From Bacteroidota bacterium (lineage in GTDB: Bacteria; Bacteroidota; Bacteroidia; UBA7662; CANHCV01): a stretch of DNA of 64,000 nt. This document shows positions 9,670-50,368 of this stretch, one piece after another (position 1 is the stretch's first letter; every line of letters begins with the position of its first letter). Below the pieces are notes generated by a model. That model had not been told where the DNA came from. It was given only the letters and a program-made list of their open reading frames with translations, and did no database searches. The stretch is taken from NCBI GenBank assembly GCA_947501265.1, contig CANMVY010000010.1, positions 1-64,000 on the forward strand, written 5' to 3'. Position numbers and translations under genes: made by a program.

Positions 9670-10923
9670 TTATAATCGAGCGTCGATAATTTCTTTGGAG
9701 AGTTTGGATTTGACATCGAATAACACGGTTGATTCGTGCGCTATTTTAGAAAGATCCAAGTTTTCGAATTCGTCATGAGCCACAGCTAAAACCACGGCAT
9801 CGTATTGATTATCAATAGTTTTTACTAGTTCTACACCGTATTCATGTTTCACTTCCTCGTTATCGGCCCAAGGATCATAAATTTCTACTTGGGTTCCAAA
9901 TTCCTTCAATTCGTGAATAATATCAATCACTTTTGAATTTCGAATGTCGGGGCAATTCTCTTTGAAGGTCATTCCAAGCACGAGAACTCTGCTTTTGTTC
10001 ACGGTGTGGCCTTTGTGAATGAGAAGTTTTATGACTTTGTTGGCCACCCAAGCTCCCATATTATCATTGATTCGGCGACCTGATAAAATAACTTCAGGAT
10101 GATATCCAAGTTCTTCCGCTTTGTAGGTTAAGTAATAAGGATCTACGCCAATGCAATGGCCTCCTACCAAACCTGGTCGGAAGGGCAAGAAGTTCCATTT
10201 GGTACCCGCTGCTTCAAGCACTTCAACAGTATCGATGTTCATGCGTTCAAAAATGAGGGCAAGTTCATTCACAAATGCGATATTGATATCTCGTTGGCAG
10301 TTTTCAATCACTTTTGCCGCTTCTGCCACTTTGATAGATGGAGCTTTGTAGGTTCCTGCTTCGATGATGGACAGGTAGATCTGATCAACGGTTTCTGCAA
10401 TTTCTGGTGTTGAACCCGCAGTGATTTTTCGAATTTTGGTAACGGTATGCACCTTATCTCCTGGATTAATTCTTTCAGGAGAATAGCCACAGAAAAAATC
10501 GACATTGAATTTCAATCCGCTTACTTTTTCAAGAATGGGCACGCAATCCTCCTCGGTGCAACCCGGATAAACGGTTGACTCGTATACCACGATGTCACCT
10601 TTTTTCAAAACCTTACCAACGGTTTCAGAAGCTTTTCTCAATGGAGTTAAATCCGGTCTACGATTTTTATCGATGGGCGTTGGAACGGTTACAATGAAAA
10701 AATTAGCTTCTTTCAAGTGCTCCAATTCGTTGGTAAACGATAAAAGAGCCGAAGATTTTAAATTGGCTTCGTCTACCTCAAGGGTACGATCATAGCCTTT
10801 TCTTAGTTCATGAATTCGATCGAGATTAATATCAAAACCGATGGTTTTCATTTTCTTCCCAAATTCCACAGCCAGTGGAAGGCCTACATATCCTAAGCCA
10901 ATAACTGCAATATTCTTATTCAT
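9670..10923 (-). CDS. Nucleotide-sugar dehydrogenase, UDP-N-acetylhexosamine 6-dehydrogenase type (WbpO/TviB-like)
   Basis: This 417-residue protein oxidises the C6 hydroxyl of a UDP-sugar to the uronate with two NAD+. The N-terminal Rossmann motif is GLGYVGLPLAVEFG. The catalytic cysteine lies in GGHCIGVDPYYLTYKAEELG (near residue 257), the form seen in WbpO/TviB and WecC enzymes rather than in UDP-glucose dehydrogenases. The C-terminal UDP-binding domain contains GMTFKENCPDIRNSK. The start overlaps the tyrosine kinase gene end by 8 bases. The exact substrate (GlcNAc or GalNAc form) is inferred from motif type only. Confidence 0.87.
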   Translation of the reverse strand: MNKNIAVIGLGYVGLPLAVEFGKKMKTIGFDINLDRIHELRKGYDRTLEVDEANLKSSALLSFTNELEHLKEANFFIVTVPTPIDKNRRPDLTPLRKASETVGKVLKKGDIVVYESTVYPGCTEEDCVPILEKVSGLKFNVDFFCGYSPERINPGDKVHTVTKIRKITAGSTPEIAETVDQIYLSIIEAGTYKAPSIKVAEAAKVIENCQRDINIAFVNELALIFERMNIDTVEVLEAAGTKWNFLPFRPGLVGGHCIGVDPYYLTYKAEELGYHPEVILSGRRINDNMGAWVANKVIKLLIHKGHTVNKSRVLVLGMTFKENCPDIRNSKVIDIIHELKEFGTQVEIYDPWADNEEVKHEYGVELVKTIDNQYDAVVLAVAHDEFENLDLSKIAHESTVLFDVKSKLSKEIIDARL

Positions 10924-13429
10924 CGTTTTTATTCTTTAAATTAAAAATGCCGAGAAATTTATCTTTCAGCGTTTTAGGTTTTTGGTAATCCTCTTCATAG
11001 TAACCGTATCCGTAGCCACCGTAGCCGTAGCCGTAGCCGTAGCCGTAACCGTAACCGTAACCATAACCGTAACCATAACCGTAGCCATAACCGTAGCCAT
11101 AACTATTGGTTCGTCGCATATCAAAATCGTTGAAAATGGTGAATATCTTATCGATATTACCTTTTTCAATTTGGCTATTGATGAACATCAAGTTTTGTTT
11201 TTCAGTAACAGTTTGTCGAACTAAATACAAATTAATATCGGAGAACTTGGTAAGATCCAAGGCGTCGGTAATCAATCCGGCTGGAGGCGTATCGATAACA
11301 ATAACATCGTATTCTTTTTCAAGCGCTTCCATCATAACAGTCACTTTTGGTGAAATGATTAATTCGGAAGGATTGGGTGGAACAGGGCCAGAAAGAATGA
11401 CATCCAGATTATTGATTTCTGTTTTCTTGATGACATTTTCCAACGGAATATCTTTGATCAAATAATTGGTCAAACCAATATCATTGATCATTTCAAAGTC
11501 ATTGTTAATTCTAGGTTTTCTCAAGTCAAAACCCAACAAAACCACTTTTTTTCCTGCAATAGCATAAACGGCAGCAATGTTGATCGCGCAAAATGTTTTT
11601 CCTTCTCCGGAGATACTCGATGTAATGAGAATTTTGAATTTTTCCTTCCCAACGAAATAATTGATGTTGGTTCGAAGCGATCGGAAGGTTTCGGAAATCA
11701 TTGACTTCGGGAAATTCTGAACAACAAGCGGGTGATTTTTATTGTTGTGCGAAATAACCCCGATATTCTTCATCAAGGTAGCTCGATTGAGTTCGTCAAC
11801 GCTATTGATCTTGTTATTCAAGAAGTCGAGAATAACCAACAGAATAATGGGCAATAACAATCCAATGATCAAACAAATGGAATAGTTGAATGCTTTTTTA
11901 GGAGAAATCACTTCTCCAATTCTAGGGGCATCTAAAATTTGGAACGGAGAAATGGCCGAAAACTTGGTAATTCCATATTCAATCCTTTTCTCCAACAGGA
12001 ACTTGTACATGTTTTCTTGTACTCCAAAGCGGCGGGCAAGATCGGAAAGTTTACGGTTTTGATTAGGAATAGAGCGAACTTGCTGATCTAGGATTCCAAT
12101 CTCTCTCGATAAATCGGAAATGGTAAAATTCAACTTAGAATAATAATCATTAACTGCATCCAACAAACTATTTCTATAATTCAAGATGACTTGATATTTC
12201 TCTTGGTAAATGGCTGTTTTTGGAGAAAAACTTTCTTTCACCAATTGAAATTCAGCTGAACTGCTGATGATTTTCGATAATAATTCAAGAACAACGGGGT
12301 CTTCAATGCCTACGGATGAAGGCGAAACCATATCGGTATATTCTTTTTTGTTCTTCAAATAGCTTTTCAAATAATCCAAATAACGAACTTTCAAAACCTC
12401 CTTACTTTTCTGTTCGTTCATGCTGGCTAACTTTTGCATGATGTACGTTTCGCCATTGGTGGTCGCTGAAAAGATATTTTGAGATTGGAAGTTCTCCATT
12501 CCTCCTTCTACTTTCCCCAATGAATCGGAAATGATTTCAAGTTGTTCATCGATAAATCGAATGGTGTTGATTGCACTTTCACGCTGTTCATCCAATTTCA
12601 TGTCTTGAAATGTAAGCAATAAAGTTTCCAAGAAAATAACATCCTTATCAGGGATGGGGGAAACCATGGCTGCTTCGATAAGATTGGCGTTTCTGTTCGG
12701 GCGATTGAAAGAGACTTTACCCAAATATTGCGAGATCAACTGTTGTCGACTGAACGACATGAAGTACACCTCATTGGAGGCAATTTCTTCGGATGAGATT
12801 GATTTGTGTACAATGAATTTGAAGGTAGGTGTTTCAACAATTTCTCCGAACTTATACTTCTTGGCCTTGAGGCCATTTGACTTAATATTTCGGTTTAATT
12901 CTTCGGTTTGTGTTGACGGGTAAAATAATTTTCCATTGGTTACCTTTTCTAAAACATAAGAATTTTGATCAACAATTTTTACTTTGAAAGATCCGTTTAA
13001 TTCTTGCAAGTGGGTAGAATCGAAAACAACTTTGATGGGGTTATTCTTGTAAATTTCAACAAATTTTTGAACCTTACCAACCGTGTAATACTTGATTCCA
13101 AATTCTATTTTGTCGATGGTGTTCTCCGTGATTTTTCTTGACTTGAGCACACTCAAAACATTCTCAATGGCCTCCCCGGTATTGAGCATTCCATTCAAGT
13201 TTAAAAGAACAACGCCTTGTTGATTTTCCTGACGGTCAGAAATAACTACGGTTCCACGGATGGAATAATTGGGAATGGAATAACGATTGATGACGAAACC
13301 AACCAAAAACGAAAACAATAAGCTCAAAAGAATAATTGGCCAGATGCCAACCAACTTATTTAGCAATAGCTTAAAATCTAACGAATTTTCTTCTTTTTCT
13401 TCGAATGAACTTTTTGGATCTTGCTGCAT
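10916..13429 (-). CDS. Wzc-like polysaccharide co-polymerase with tyrosine autokinase domain
   Basis: The protein is 837 residues. A transmembrane segment at ~33-50 opens a Wzz-type periplasmic domain with long coiled coils, and a second segment lies at ~515-540 (YSICLIIGLLLPIILLVIL). The cytoplasmic BY-kinase domain follows: Walker A SSISGEGKT (~610), Walker A' LLGFDLRKPR and Walker B VIVIDTPP (~712). It would regulate polysaccharide chain length and export with the adjacent Wza-like protein. The C-terminal tail contains an unbroken run of about 14 Tyr-Gly pairs, then GYGYGYYEED, about 19 tyrosines in all. Such tails are the autophosphorylation cluster, but this repetition is extreme. Confidence 0.93.
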   Translation of the reverse strand: MQQDPKSSFEEKEENSLDFKLLLNKLVGIWPIILLSLLFSFLVGFVINRYSIPNYSIRGTVVISDRQENQQGVVLLNLNGMLNTGEAIENVLSVLKSRKITENTIDKIEFGIKYYTVGKVQKFVEIYKNNPIKVVFDSTHLQELNGSFKVKIVDQNSYVLEKVTNGKLFYPSTQTEELNRNIKSNGLKAKKYKFGEIVETPTFKFIVHKSISSEEIASNEVYFMSFSRQQLISQYLGKVSFNRPNRNANLIEAAMVSPIPDKDVIFLETLLLTFQDMKLDEQRESAINTIRFIDEQLEIISDSLGKVEGGMENFQSQNIFSATTNGETYIMQKLASMNEQKSKEVLKVRYLDYLKSYLKNKKEYTDMVSPSSVGIEDPVVLELLSKIISSSAEFQLVKESFSPKTAIYQEKYQVILNYRNSLLDAVNDYYSKLNFTISDLSREIGILDQQVRSIPNQNRKLSDLARRFGVQENMYKFLLEKRIEYGITKFSAISPFQILDAPRIGEVISPKKAFNYSICLIIGLLLPIILLVILDFLNNKINSVDELNRATLMKNIGVISHNNKNHPLVVQNFPKSMISETFRSLRTNINYFVGKEKFKILITSSISGEGKTFCAINIAAVYAIAGKKVVLLGFDLRKPRINNDFEMINDIGLTNYLIKDIPLENVIKKTEINNLDVILSGPVPPNPSELIISPKVTVMMEALEKEYDVIVIDTPPAGLITDALDLTKFSDINLYLVRQTVTEKQNLMFINSQIEKGNIDKIFTIFNDFDMRRTNSYGYGYGYGYGYGYGYGYGYGYGYGYGYGGYGYGYYEEDYQKPKTLKDKFLGIFNLKNKNDE
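11005..11103. repeat. Hexanucleotide tandem repeat coding the (Tyr-Gly)n kinase tail
   Basis: About sixteen imperfect copies of a 6-base unit (plus-strand form RNCCRT: AGCCGT, AACCGT, AACCAT, AGCCAT) lie inside the Wzc-like gene. Each unit codes one Tyr-Gly pair. Synonymous differences between units show that the peptide is conserved while the DNA varies, although slippage could still alter copy number in 2-residue steps without a frameshift. Confidence 0.9.
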
Positions 13430-46656: not shown

Positions 46657-46950
46657 TCAATCCACCTGATCACTAGGGCGGTGAAAGTCTTTGTAATTAG
46701 GGCATTCTTCCTTTAAAATTTTTCTCATCTCGTCTCCCCACTTTTCTGTTCCTCGATAACTGTCAGGAATTTGGTCTCCATACTTTTCATTACAATCCAA
46801 CAAAACAGAAGTGTTTGCATCTAGACCATGATATTTGAAATTATCATAACATTCACATGCACTTGGCCCACAAGAACTTAGGATTGTCACAAGAAAAAAT
46901 AAAAAAGATCCAAGGAAAACTCCTTTTTTGAGATAAATAGATTTTTTCAT
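46657..46950 (-). CDS. Small Cys-containing lipoprotein in the AT-rich block
   Basis: The 97-residue protein has a lipoprotein signal (hydrophobic run then LSSC near residue 27) and a mature part with further cysteines (PSACECYDNFKYH, LLDCNEKYGDQ, EECPNYKDF). No family was recognised. Base composition is clearly more AT-rich than genes to the left. It lies downstream of and on the same strand as the zinc-ribbon membrane protein. Confidence 0.65.
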   Translation of the reverse strand: MKKSIYLKKGVFLGSFLFFLVTILSSCGPSACECYDNFKYHGLDANTSVLLDCNEKYGDQIPDSYRGTEKWGDEMRKILKEECPNYKDFHRPSDQVD

Positions 46951-46972
46951 TTAGCTTAATTTTTAAATTTAA

Positions 46973-48850
46973 TTAGTTAAATGTGACATTGCTTTCGCTT
47001 ATCCACCCTTCAACATATACATCATTAATCATCTGAGAAATAAAAATGAACCCATTTTCACGTCGAGAGAAAGTACCACTATCACCTATTTTTAGGAAAA
47101 TACCTTGTGAATACTCAAAGGATGGTTCTAAATAAACTTCGGTGTTTTCAGTTATTACTGAAAATTGTCCACTTAGTTCAATCTCATTAAACTCATTAAA
47201 CTCATTAAAGTAAGATTTAATTTCTTTTCTAAGAATTTCACCATCCTTCAATCCGATAAAATTAACTTTCTCGCCAGAAGGTAATCGATATGAACCAGTA
47301 ATCTTATCCTTAGAAATAGATGTTAACTGTAAGAAATTATTATCAAAATTAATTGGGAAAGTAATATTTTCATTGTACATGGTATTGACAAGGACTTCTT
47401 GTTGGCCATCAATTTCTGTACAAACAGCAAACATATTTGAAGAGATAATGCCATCAGATGCGTCAGCATTCATGTTTGATGATGAACTATTAATGCTCAA
47501 CTCCTCAATTTCAGTACTATCAGCATTTAAAAAATACCATGTTCCATTAATCAAGTCTAAATTATTTTTAGCAAAAGTAGAATATTCGTCTCTTGTAACA
47601 TTATGTTTAGTTGTCGTTGAGTAGGTGAAAAATGCTAAATACAATGAAGTAATTACTACTGGCAAAAACCAATTTTTGAATAACCAAGTATTTTGAAATT
47701 TGCTTTCTTTAGACCCTTTGGACTTTTTGTAATCAAAAAAGTATGCCGATACCGCTAAAACGAAGAACAGAACTACATAGAAATTTGCTGCGACATAGAA
47801 TGATTTATAAAAATAATACTCCCTTGATGAAGAAAAGTGGTTTTCATCGTCAACAAATAAACTTGCATCCCAAATCTCTCTAAACAAAAAATAATGAAGG
47901 ACACCAAAAAGCAAATTCTGAGTGAATACAGAGGTTGTTAAATTCAAATTTTTGTATCTTGCTAGAGGTATTGGAATTAGGAGCCATATAAAAAACAATG
48001 GGAAGTCGACAATATTCCAAACTTCTAAAAATGGAATTATTGAAAAAGCAACAATATAAAAAGCAAAAATCCAATCACTAGTTAAAAAAAGAAGTATTTT
48101 GGAATTATCGTTTTTTATTTCGTCTAAATACTTCTTAATGTATGGAATAGTTTTATCAACTTTCTTTAATTCTAAAACATTCATTACAATACGCGTGCTT
48201 ACTTTTTTCACAAACCATGTTGTGGCCCAAGAAAGTAAACTAGGTGAAATATTATTTTCCTTTAAAACAGGATTTACAGAGGTATTGAAAACATGATTTG
48301 AGACAGTATTTGCTTCAGCTTTTAACTTTAAGAAAGATTCCAAATCTATATTACCTAATTCAATATTAGATAAAGATTTTGTTATCGATCTAGTTAAATA
48401 TAAAAGGTAAATAAAAAGAGTAAATTTATTTAAATAAGAAATTTTCCTGGTGTGGTAATACACCTTGTAAGCCCAGTTGTTTTTAGGGTCAATTTTTTCC
48501 TTATCAATTTTTGGAACTTGACTGGGTTTCCCTTTTTGTTCACTTTTAACTAAATTAATTTTTGTAGAACAATTTTGACAAACTACCTGCTCAGGGAATT
48601 GTGAAGAAGCATCTTTCTGAAAATTAACTTTCGAATTACACTTTTTGCACGTTACAGTACCTATTTTTTTTGTGCTCGGCTGAAGATTAGGGGTTGGGAC
48701 CTTGTCATTGTTAGAGGTCTTTATTGGATTAGTTAATCTGTATTTTTGTTGACAGCTAGGGCACCCAATGGTAAATTCATTTGCAGGCGCTTTTGAATAA
48801 TCAATTTTTATTTTATTGTCGCATTTTTTGCAACTCAAGATTTTTATCAT
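46973..48850 (-). CDS. Zinc-ribbon, multi-pass membrane protein with C-terminal SH3-like region
   Basis: The 625-residue protein begins with two MJ0042/ribbon-type motifs: CKKC ... CPSC (residues 7-34) and CKKC ... CQNC (~67-93). About five or six membrane helices follow between ~145 and 395 (for example FLTSDWIFAFYIVAFSIIPF). The C-terminal ~200 residues are soluble, Ser/Asn-rich, and end in a stretch that resembles a bacterial SH3 domain (VYLEPSFEYSQGIF ... DVYVEGWISESNV). I know no protein with this combination. Its AT-rich codon use suggests transfer. Confidence 0.8.
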   Translation of the reverse strand: MIKILSCKKCDNKIKIDYSKAPANEFTIGCPSCQQKYRLTNPIKTSNNDKVPTPNLQPSTKKIGTVTCKKCNSKVNFQKDASSQFPEQVVCQNCSTKINLVKSEQKGKPSQVPKIDKEKIDPKNNWAYKVYYHTRKISYLNKFTLFIYLLYLTRSITKSLSNIELGNIDLESFLKLKAEANTVSNHVFNTSVNPVLKENNISPSLLSWATTWFVKKVSTRIVMNVLELKKVDKTIPYIKKYLDEIKNDNSKILLFLTSDWIFAFYIVAFSIIPFLEVWNIVDFPLFFIWLLIPIPLARYKNLNLTTSVFTQNLLFGVLHYFLFREIWDASLFVDDENHFSSSREYYFYKSFYVAANFYVVLFFVLAVSAYFFDYKKSKGSKESKFQNTWLFKNWFLPVVITSLYLAFFTYSTTTKHNVTRDEYSTFAKNNLDLINGTWYFLNADSTEIEELSINSSSSNMNADASDGIISSNMFAVCTEIDGQQEVLVNTMYNENITFPINFDNNFLQLTSISKDKITGSYRLPSGEKVNFIGLKDGEILRKEIKSYFNEFNEFNEIELSGQFSVITENTEVYLEPSFEYSQGIFLKIGDSGTFSRRENGFIFISQMINDVYVEGWISESNVTFN

Positions 48851-48874
48851 GGCATGTTTATTAAAAAATGGGAC

Positions 48875-49300
48875 TTAAAAATCAAAATCTCCATCATTAT
48901 CAGAATCAACTGCATAATCATCTGCAATTCCATCTCCGTCGTAATCCATAGCGACAACATCAACATCTCCATCACCATCAGTATCATATGCCATGGTATC
49001 TACCTGACCGTCACCGTCTGTATCCATTGCCACCGTATCAACTTGACCGTCACCATTTGTATCATATGCCACCGTATCAACTTGACCGTCACCATCTGAA
49101 TCCATTGCAATTGTATCAACATGCCCATCCCCATCAGTATCATAGGCTATTGTGTCGATAAAACCATCATCATCACTGTCTATTGCTATAACATCTGAAT
49201 CACCATCATTATCAGAATCAATAAAAATGGCATCAGCATACCCGTCATTATTTGTATCTTTTGCGACAGATTCATTAATTCCATCATTATTTAGGTCTAG
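48875..49300. repeat. 39-base coding tandem repeat
   Basis: The gene for the Asp-rich protein consists of about eleven direct copies of a 39-base unit. Several middle copies share long nearly identical stretches around 48990-49110 (GTATCAACTTGACCGTCACC recurs), which suggests recent duplication. Copies are contiguous with no spacers, so this is not a CRISPR array. Confidence 0.88.
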
Positions 49301-49312
49301 GTTTTTATTCAT
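48875..49312 (-). CDS. Protein built of eleven 13-residue Asp-rich calcium-loop-like repeats
   Basis: The protein is 145 residues: 5 N-terminal residues (MNKNL), ten full 13-residue repeats and a last one of 10. The consensus is D-x-[DN]-[GND]-D-G-x-x-[DE]-x-x-A-x, for example DTDGDGQVDTVAM, close to the DxDxDG calcium loop of EF-hands and type-3 repeats. There is no signal peptide, membrane segment or other domain. The next gene on the strand is the zinc-ribbon membrane protein. Calcium binding is inferred from the loop. Confidence 0.85.
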   Translation of the reverse strand: MNKNLDLNNDGINESVAKDTNNDGYADAIFIDSDNDGDSDVIAIDSDDDGFIDTIAYDTDGDGHVDTIAMDSDGDGQVDTVAYDTNGDGQVDTVAMDTDGDGQVDTMAYDTDGDGDVDVVAMDYDGDGIADDYAVDSDNDGDFDF

Positions 49313-49352
49313 TTTTTTAGTTTAAATTTTTATTTACTTTGTTTTTATTTTA

Positions 49353-49375
49353 GTGTGCATTAATAAAATGTACAC
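49353..49375. promoter_or_regulatory. Candidate operator: 9-base inverted repeat
   Basis: GTGTGCATT-AATAA-AATGTACAC is an inverted repeat with 8 of 9 matching positions. It lies between the divergent Asp-rich repeat gene and the XRE regulator gene, where a regulator binding site would be expected. Confidence 0.4.
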
Positions 49376-49458
49376 ATTTCAAATTTAATGATTGATATTG
49401 ATTCAAAAAGTGTTTTAAAAATCCCGATTAGATTATCAGTTTGTGATTTTGGTAGGCA

Positions 49459-49899
49459 ATGGTTAAATTTGAGGATATGGAAGGGCAAAATGCTATGGAT
49501 GTAGGACATAAAATCAGAAGAATCCGAGAAATCAAAGGAATTAAGCAAGAAACAATCGCCAATCAAATTGGCATTGCAGTTAGTTCTTTTGGGAAAATAG
49601 AGCGAGGGGAAATACAGCTTTCTGTGGAAAGACTTCAGGCTATTGCCGAGGCGCTTGAACTTCCGGTAAATGCCATCCTTGAATATGATGAAGGAGTGAA
49701 TAATTTCTTCAACTCGAATACGTTTAACACGACGGGTCTTGGCGGATTCTTCAATACCTCCAATTCTCACTTTCATATGAACAATGAGGAAACACTTCTA
49801 AAACAAATAGAAGTTCTTATGGGAATGCTAAAAAGCATGGAGCATGTCGTAGCGACTCAGAAAGACCTTATCAATGAGTTGAGAGGAAAAAACAATTAG
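49459..49899 (+). CDS. XRE-family HTH regulator with C-terminal coiled coil
   Basis: The protein is 146 residues from the first ATG; ATG codons at 49477 and 49495 are alternative starts, the latter just before the domain. The HTH (KIRRIREIKGIKQETIANQI, then GKIERGEIQLSVERL) is a standard Cro/CI type. The middle is Asn/Phe-rich and the last 35 residues form a likely coiled coil (LLKQIEVLMGMLKSMEHVV). It is divergent from the Asp-rich repeat gene and probably controls the block. Confidence 0.87.
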   Translation: MVKFEDMEGQNAMDVGHKIRRIREIKGIKQETIANQIGIAVSSFGKIERGEIQLSVERLQAIAEALELPVNAILEYDEGVNNFFNSNTFNTTGLGGFFNTSNSHFHMNNEETLLKQIEVLMGMLKSMEHVVATQKDLINELRGKNN

Positions 49900-50243
49900 G
49901 TTTGACAGTCCACTAATTACCTATTTTTATTGAGATAGCTCAAAGTATCTAGGTACCTCTTCCCCTGGAGCTACTCCTCGGCAAGGCCCAGGCCACTAAA
50001 ATAGGTTTGATTGTGAGAATGATTTTCATATTAGGTTATTCTAGCCCTTCAAAAAAATCAATGGTTTTTATTGGGACCGCCCTTCGATTGAACTCAGGGA
50101 TCACCCTTGTCCCTTAGGGATAACTCGAAGCGCCCGCCCCGAGAGAGATCAATTTACCGCATTATTCTTGGGAGGATTTGCCTTCGCTCCCAAGACAATT
50201 TCATTTGATTTTCACTTTCCCTTTCCCCCCCCCAATCCAAAAT
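49900..50243. other. Non-coding interval between XRE gene and tRNA-Ser terminator
   Basis: No convincing coding frame is seen on either strand. A 6-base inverted pair, CTTCGA (50082-50087) and TCGAAG (50125-50130), encloses a nested AGGGA/TCCCT pair, so a structured RNA or a decayed RNA gene is possible. I find no copy of the tRNA-Ser 3' end here. In such a compact genome, 344 empty bases are notable. Confidence 0.5.
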
Positions 50244-50269: not shown

Positions 50270-50280
50270 CAGTTAATTTG

Positions 50281-50368
50281 CGGAGACGGAGAGATTCGAA
50301 CTCTCGATACGCTTTTGGCGTATACACACTTTCCAGGCGTGCTCCTTCAGCCACTCGGACACGTCTCC
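50281..50368 (-). tRNA. tRNA-Ser(GGA)
   Basis: The 88-base gene reads from 50368 down to 50281. The acceptor stem GGAGACG pairs with CGTCTCC, with discriminator G as in serine tRNAs. The anticodon loop CTGGAAA gives anticodon GGA (serine codons UCC/UCU). There is a long variable arm (TATACGCCAAAAGCGTAT forms a hairpin), diagnostic of a class II tRNA, and the T-loop is GTTCGAATC. The CCA end is not encoded; the next bases are CAA. It has its own terminator. Confidence 0.96.

What the first reader, a model, noticed from the sequence alone, without database searches (positions are those of the whole stretch)
46657..49899. AT-rich accessory unit: lipoprotein, zinc-ribbon membrane protein, calcium-loop repeat protein and divergent XRE regulator
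Seen: four genes of very different composition from the flanks, three on one strand and one divergent regulator, with no recognisable transposase, phage or toxin gene. Family knowledge: zinc ribbons, DxDxDG loops and XRE regulators are individually known. Inference: a regulated envelope-associated module that senses or buffers divalent metal, with a repeat protein, a zinc-ribbon membrane protein and a lipoprotein as parts. I know no named system with this set.
Basis: partly seen in the sequence, partly recalled or inferred. Interest (0 to 1): 0.75.

Follow-up and report, generated by a model that had tools for sequence, protein, structure and literature searches.

The report
Paired acidic repeat and zinc-ribbon membrane proteins
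A horizontally acquired AT-rich patch in a Bacteroidota genome carries a very rare two-gene module, an acidic calcium-loop repeat protein encoded next to a zinc-ribbon membrane protein, which occurs as the same adjacent pair in two other bacteria beside a caspase-like protease (with a sigma factor and its inhibitor in one) and so points to an undescribed membrane signalling or effector device.

Summary
In detail: four ORFs lie at 46657-49899, at 30-39% GC against about 44-48% around them. Two genes form a real module: the 145-aa acidic protein (11 DxDGDG loops in perfect 13-residue register, net charge -44, no signal peptide) and the 625-aa protein (two zinc ribbons, a new conserved basic helical domain, about five TM helices, a periplasmic beta-rich end). 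Genome searches found the membrane protein's N-terminal module in only two other genomes; both carry the short repeat gene 10-11 bp upstream, and no searched genome has one without the other. There the pair lies convergent to a TPR-CHAT caspase-like gene; the one uncut locus also has an ECF sigma/anti-sigma pair. Other loci of this kind carry a membrane protein with a different N-terminal half and no repeat gene. The window genome lacks the CHAT protease. The lipoprotein and XRE regulator do not travel with the pair: the lipoprotein's only relative is in an integrase/restriction island, and the XRE gene is a diverged paralogue of a genus regulator. Best reading: the acidic (probably Ca2+-binding) protein docks on the basic cytosolic face of the membrane protein, as an envelope sensor/effector. 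Pairing is shown; mechanism is inferred.

The parts
48875..49312 (-). Acidic repeat protein, 145 aa: 11 tandem 13-residue units D-x-[DN]-x-[DN]-G-x-x-D-x-h-x-x, net charge -44, no signal peptide; core of the module
   Evidence: close homologues adjacent to the same partner in L003 (1428-1715) and L043 (7417-7782)
46973..48850 (-). Membrane protein, 625 aa: two zinc ribbons (1-42, 62-104), conserved basic helical domain (119-242), about 5 TM helices (roughly 254-413), periplasmic beta-rich C-terminal region; core of the module
   Evidence: relatives P0005 (L003) and P0006 (L043)
48125..48496 (-). Conserved helical domain (residues 119-242 of the membrane protein), no known family or fold, 60-66% identical between loci while the TM and C-terminal parts are 17-32%
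46657..46950 (-). Small cysteine-containing lipoprotein, 97 aa; probably a passenger, not conserved with the pair
49459..49899 (+). XRE-family regulator with a C-terminal helical tail, divergent from the pair; paralogue of a genus regulator (G000:C12:41282-41689, 57% over 129 aa by BLASTP)
49313..49458 (.). Divergent intergenic region with an imperfect palindrome GTGTGCATT-AATAA-AATGTACAC at 49353-49375, a candidate operator (weak: a palindrome this good with at least 3 G/C per arm arises in 3% of shuffles)

Best explanation
The patch is an acquired accessory segment whose functional core is a two-gene module. SHOWN by sequence: the acidic 13-residue DxDGDG repeat protein and the zinc-ribbon membrane protein are encoded next to each other in all three genomes where either was found, and the part of the membrane protein conserved between loci is its N-terminal zinc ribbon plus helical domain, not the membrane or C-terminal part. 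INFERRED: the repeat protein stays in the cytosol (no signal peptide in any of the three), binds Ca2+ through its loops, and docks on the basic (+24 to +25) cytosolic module of the membrane protein. The membrane protein (N-in, about 5 TM, C-out) thereby links a cytosolic Ca2+/charge-controlled partner to a periplasmic beta-rich domain. In the original setting the pair is cargo of an envelope-stress locus: an ECF sigma factor, a single-pass anti-sigma with a periplasmic TPR part, and a periplasmic membrane-anchored TPR-CHAT (caspase-like) protease that could release the sigma factor. In the window the pair has been separated from that control and sits opposite an XRE repressor.
For: Exclusive co-occurrence and adjacency: the membrane family was found in 2 of 149 relatives of the window genome, 1 of 396 phylum-wide genomes (the window genome itself) and 2 of 299 relatives of G147 as full-length matches; its N-terminal module in 2 of 399 genomes of G147's order. 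The short repeat gene was found only in the same genomes; other hits are stretches inside 2085-2453-residue ORFs. Gaps are 24, 11 and 10 bp. Conservation by region: Zn1 57-79%, helical domain 60-66%, TM part 17-30%, C-terminal region 17-32%. Opposite charges in all three pairs: N-terminal module +24/+25/+25, repeat protein -44/-45/-34. Five homologous membrane proteins with a swapped coiled-coil + 4-TM N-terminus have no repeat gene at their locus, so the repeat gene tracks the zinc/helical half. TM counts of about 5 and 9 keep N-in/C-out. Locus L043: ECF sigma (Sigma70_r4_2 6e-6), anti-sigma-like protein with one TM and TPR, CHAT 1.6e-37 with a signal-like N-terminus and a C-terminal TM. Zn1 resembles ZitP ZnR (Foldseek prob 0.89, rmsd 2.1, but E 1.7), a cytosolic zinc ribbon on a membrane protein that directly binds a cytosolic partner (PMC5182065).
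Against: Only three pairs are known, and one locus (G147) looks decayed (in-frame stops in the membrane gene and the CHAT gene). No direct evidence of Ca2+ binding or of a complex. The cytosolic location of the repeat protein rests on the absence of a signal peptide. The window genome has no CHAT relative, so the sigma/CHAT logic cannot operate there. Sigma/anti-sigma genes are seen in one of the two other loci of the pair; the other contig is cut. Membrane regions were modelled with low confidence (pLDDT 44).
Confidence: 0.45

Rival explanations
1. Effector-inhibitor (toxin-antitoxin-like) pair: the multi-TM protein is a membrane-damaging effector held silent by the acidic repeat protein bound to its basic cytosolic module, with XRE (window) or sigma/anti-sigma/CHAT (relatives) as control; release of the inhibitor perturbs the membrane.
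For: Small acidic gene first, membrane gene second, 10-24 bp apart; complementary charges; CHAT caspase-like neighbours and swapped N-terminal halves are typical of conflict systems; patchy distribution; divergent XRE gene.
Against: No PADLOC match to either protein; large periplasmic C-terminal region unlike simple membrane toxins; no known toxin motif; the XRE gene is not conserved with the pair; inactivating stops in G147 do not discriminate.
Confidence: 0.22
2. The repeat protein is an exported Ca2+-dependent surface or matrix protein and the membrane protein assists its export or anchors it (adhesin-like), without a cytosolic partnership.
For: Most DxDG-rich repeat proteins are extracellular; PMC3123361 says that among known contexts of the motif only the EF-hand and calcium-blade contexts are found inside cells.
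Against: No signal peptide, lipobox or recognisable sorting domain in any of the three proteins; only 95-145 aa; the conserved part of the partner is the cytosolic zinc/helical half; a Rhodococcus plasmid also encodes a 13-residue DxDG protein without a signal peptide.
Confidence: 0.15
3. The reader's four-gene metal-sensing/buffering envelope module: lipoprotein, zinc-ribbon protein, Ca-loop protein and XRE regulator act together.
For: Compact AT-rich patch; three genes on one strand with small gaps; divergent XRE with a weak candidate operator.
Against: Lipoprotein and XRE are absent from the two other loci of the pair; the lipoprotein's relative is in an unrelated integrase/restriction island; XRE has intermediate composition and paralogues in the genus.
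Confidence: 0.1
4. Decaying leftover of a mobile element or of a CHAT/sigma locus with no function in this host.
For: No CHAT relative in the genome; the related G147 locus carries stops; AT-rich and restricted to one of the three species of the genus searched.
Against: All four frames are intact here; 11 repeat units in perfect register; zinc ligands and helical-domain residues retained.
Confidence: 0.08

Closest known systems
ZitP (Caulobacter), zinc-ribbon membrane protein that binds PopZ (PMC5182065)
   Same: N-terminal cytosolic CxxC...CxxC ribbon on an inner-membrane protein with a non-cytosolic C-terminal domain; ribbon 1 matches the ZitP structure 2nb9 (Foldseek prob 0.89, weak E)
   Different: ZitP has one ribbon, one TM and DUF3426; here two ribbons, a 124-residue helical domain, about 5 TM and an unrelated C-terminal region; the partner here is an acidic DxDG repeat protein, not PopZ
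Type III-E CRISPR Craspase / CASP-sigma locus (TPR-CHAT Csx29, Csx30 inhibitor, ECF sigma; PMC10028731)
   Same: The relatives' loci combine a TPR-CHAT protein with an ECF sigma factor and a putative sigma inhibitor
   Different: CHAT here has a signal-like N-terminus and a C-terminal TM (predicted periplasmic); the inhibitor is a membrane anti-sigma; no Cas gene seen in the loci read; the window itself lacks sigma, anti-sigma and CHAT
Dx[DN]xDG calcium-binding repeat proteins (EF-hand loops, dockerins, thrombospondin type 3, DUF6802; PMC3123361)
   Same: The loop motif itself; Pfam EF-hand_5 and DUF6802 score below cut-off; 13-residue DxDG proteins on Rhodococcus plasmids
   Different: Strict 13-residue head-to-tail units without helices or cysteines, no signal peptide, constant zinc-ribbon membrane partner

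Membership tests
ZitP-like polarity anchor | N-terminal MJ0042/zinc_ribbon_5-type ribbon | tested here: inconclusive
   Zn_ribbon_4 E 1.7e-4 but 21.9 bits, below the cut-off of 30.3; Foldseek match to 2nb9 prob 0.89, rmsd 2.1, E 1.7
ZitP-like polarity anchor | single TM plus DUF3426 C-terminal domain | tested here: not met
   about 5 TM; no DUF3426 match
EF-hand / thrombospondin type 3 / DUF6802 calcium-binding proteins | profile match above curated cut-off | tested here: not met
   EF-hand_5 16.0 bits (cut-off 25.9), DUF6802 12.5 bits (cut-off 27.0); no PDB sequence match
EF-hand / thrombospondin type 3 / DUF6802 calcium-binding proteins | binds Ca2+ | not testable with these tools
   needs calorimetry or circular dichroism; only the ligand pattern is seen
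Sigma/anti-sigma/CHAT protease locus (Craspase-like logic) | TPR-CHAT protease present | tested here: not met
   absent from the window genome; present in G147 and G621 next to the pair
Sigma/anti-sigma/CHAT protease locus (Craspase-like logic) | ECF sigma factor and its inhibitor adjacent | tested here: not met
   none next to the pair in the window; present in L043, L044, L045 and L048
Toxin-antitoxin pair | toxicity of one protein relieved by the other | not testable with these tools
   needs expression in a laboratory strain
Known anti-phage defence system | match to a PADLOC family other than a generic HTH | tested here: not met
   no match for P0001, P0002, P0003 or P0006; only HTH-type regulator models for the XRE protein
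Integrative element at a tRNA | integrase and att repeats | tested here: not met
   no integrase in the patch; no flanking repeat of 12 bp or more; no tRNA fragment of 14 bp or more elsewhere in the window

The most novel reading that the evidence does not exclude
A new kind of bacterial signalling or effector device: a cytosolic, tunable-length Ca2+-binding repeat protein (6, 8 and 11 loops in the three loci) that folds on Ca2+ influx and switches, through a new zinc-ribbon/helical docking domain, a multi-pass membrane protein. It would be deployed as an exchangeable cartridge of a periplasmic caspase-like protease/sigma-factor system and also move alone.
Probability: 0.25. Interest if true: 0.85.

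Novelty: new variant of a known kind. Interest (0 to 1): 0.55.

Why it matters
Bacterial intracellular calcium proteins with a defined partner are rare. A strictly co-inherited pair with opposite charges, a new conserved helical domain and a home next to a CHAT caspase-like protease, with a sigma/anti-sigma pair at the uncut locus, gives a small, testable system for how bacteria might couple Ca2+ or envelope damage to a membrane response. It also documents N-terminal cartridge swapping in otherwise homologous membrane proteins of such loci.

Tried and rejected
Viral contigs, phages and plasmids gave no relative of the pair or the lipoprotein; plasmid matches to the repeat protein are actinobacterial 13-residue DxDG proteins, and at the one locus read no zinc-ribbon membrane partner was noted. 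Empty-site comparison in the genus failed: the contig of G002 ends next to the site and G001 has fumC after the glycosyltransferase. tRNA-Ser integration was considered and not supported. A shared operator between the XRE gene and its paralogues was looked for and not found. Structure prediction of the whole membrane protein was poor; the N-terminal module was fair for the helices (80-90) but Foldseek found no known fold. Literature: nothing found for CHAT + sigma factor + zinc ribbon; the Craspase papers are the nearest.

Full report
OBSERVATION. The four ORFs are exactly where described. GC falls to 0.30-0.39 in these genes against 0.46-0.49 in the flanking genes and 0.443 in the window as a whole; GC3 is 0.21-0.27 for the three minus-strand genes and 0.38 for the XRE gene. 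The XRE gene is thus compositionally intermediate. The 145-aa protein has 11 Dx[DN]x[DN]G loops spaced by exactly 13 residues with no indel; at DNA level the 39-bp units are 44-87% identical, so most of the array is old and only its middle units look recently duplicated.

WHO ELSE HAS IT. The membrane protein is extremely rare: 2 of 149 relatives (itself and G147), 1 of 396 across the phylum (itself), one locus in the GTDB scan (JACPDW010000002.1, a groundwater Flavobacteriia MAG, which matches G147), and one more full-length relative, G621, among 299 relatives of G147. Its N-terminal module appears in only 2 of 399 genomes of G147's order, the same two. The GTDB scan uses short exact peptide patterns from one sequence, so it finds close relatives only. 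No viral, phage or plasmid relative was found.

THE PAIR. In L003 (G147) and L043 (G621) a short DxDG repeat gene (95 and 121 aa) lies 11 and 10 bp upstream of the membrane gene, as in the window (24 bp). A search of 149 and 284 genomes for the short repeat protein returned only these genomes; the other two hits are stretches inside ORFs of 2085 and 2453 residues. With two of two coinciding among 284 genomes, chance is about 2.5e-5. The three repeat proteins keep a matching end (A-D-[SD]-Y-A-x-D-S-D-N-D-G-D-F-D) and differ in the number of middle units.

WHICH HALF MATTERS. Between the three membrane proteins the first zinc ribbon (57-79%) and the helical domain (residues 119-242; 60-66%) are conserved, while the TM region (17-30%) and the C-terminal region (17-32%) are not. 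Five further homologues, in L044-L048, share only the TM/C-terminal part and have a coiled coil plus four TM helices in place of the zinc/helical half; none has a short DxDG gene at its locus. So the repeat gene tracks the zinc/helical half. Counting hydrophobic helices gives 4-6 (about 5) and 9, and charge near the membrane favours N-in/C-out in seven of the eight proteins; P0005, where a doubtful sixth helix was counted, is the exception. The N-terminal module has net charge +24 to +25 in all three loci; the repeat proteins have -44, -45 and -34.

CONTEXT IN RELATIVES. L043 reads: ECF sigma - anti-sigma-like protein (one TM, TPR) - repeat protein - zinc membrane protein, then a convergent TPR-CHAT protein with a signal-like N-terminus and a C-terminal TM. 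L044, L045 and L048 have sigma, anti-sigma-like protein, the swapped membrane protein and CHAT; L046 shows the CHAT neighbour on a short contig; L047 (G661) shows neither, and no CHAT relative was found in that genome. L003 is cut upstream; its membrane gene and its CHAT gene each carry one in-frame stop. The resemblance to the type III-E CRISPR protease/sigma logic (PMC10028731) is one of principle only; that the CHAT protein acts on the anti-sigma is inferred, not shown.

WHAT IS NOT PART OF IT. The lipoprotein has one relative, in G070, beside a type I restriction system and within about 5 kb of an integrase. The XRE protein is about 55-57% identical to a regulator found once in the window genome and once in a congener, and no XRE gene was seen at the other two loci. 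A palindrome at 49353-49375 in the divergent promoter region is a weak operator candidate (3% of shuffles when at least 3 G/C per arm are required, 39% otherwise).

MECHANISM. Pairing is shown. Docking of the acidic repeat protein on the basic cytosolic module, Ca2+ binding, and transmission across the membrane are inferred. ZitP (PMC5182065) shows that a small zinc ribbon on a membrane protein can recruit a cytosolic partner; the predicted fold of ribbon 1 resembles it, weakly by E-value, but membership fails on the TM number and the C-terminal domain. The main rival is an effector-inhibitor pair. Both predict direct binding; toxicity of the membrane protein alone separates them.

LIMITS. Three loci only; genomes without names; structure models of low or fair confidence; the literature held is open-access only; the 'first look' of the genome search can miss diverged members.

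Noticed in passing
L043 2750-9255; L044, L045, L048: An apparently undescribed Bacteroidota locus type: ECF sigma, single-TM anti-sigma-like protein with a TPR tail, membrane-anchored TPR-CHAT protease and a 5- or 9-TM protein with exchangeable N-terminal half.
   Followed up: partly
L003 1727-3760 and 5256-7637: The related G147 locus has one in-frame stop in the membrane gene (codon 113, between ribbons and helical domain) and one in the CHAT gene, with a DUF4143-like ATPase gene between them, suggesting decay.
   Followed up: partly
L063 3779-4414: A Rhodococcus qingshengii plasmid encodes a 211-aa 13-residue DxDG repeat protein without a signal peptide, near a C39 peptidase and a sigma factor; similar proteins occur on other Prescottella, Gordonia and Rhodococcus plasmids.
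   Followed up: partly
window 50280-50368: tRNA-Ser(GGA) with its 3' end facing the AT-rich patch, a classic integration position, but no att repeat or integrase was found.
   Followed up: yes
window 10916-13429 (minus strand), near the C-terminal end of the 837-aa ORF: An exopolysaccharide chain-length/tyrosine-kinase-like protein has a striking GYGYGYGY tail near its C-terminus.
   Followed up: no
L010 1-600: In congener G001 a direct repeat family (GGTCCCTGAGCGAAGTCGAAGG) lies downstream of fumC; the window has a related-looking stretch near 50070-50140.
   Followed up: no
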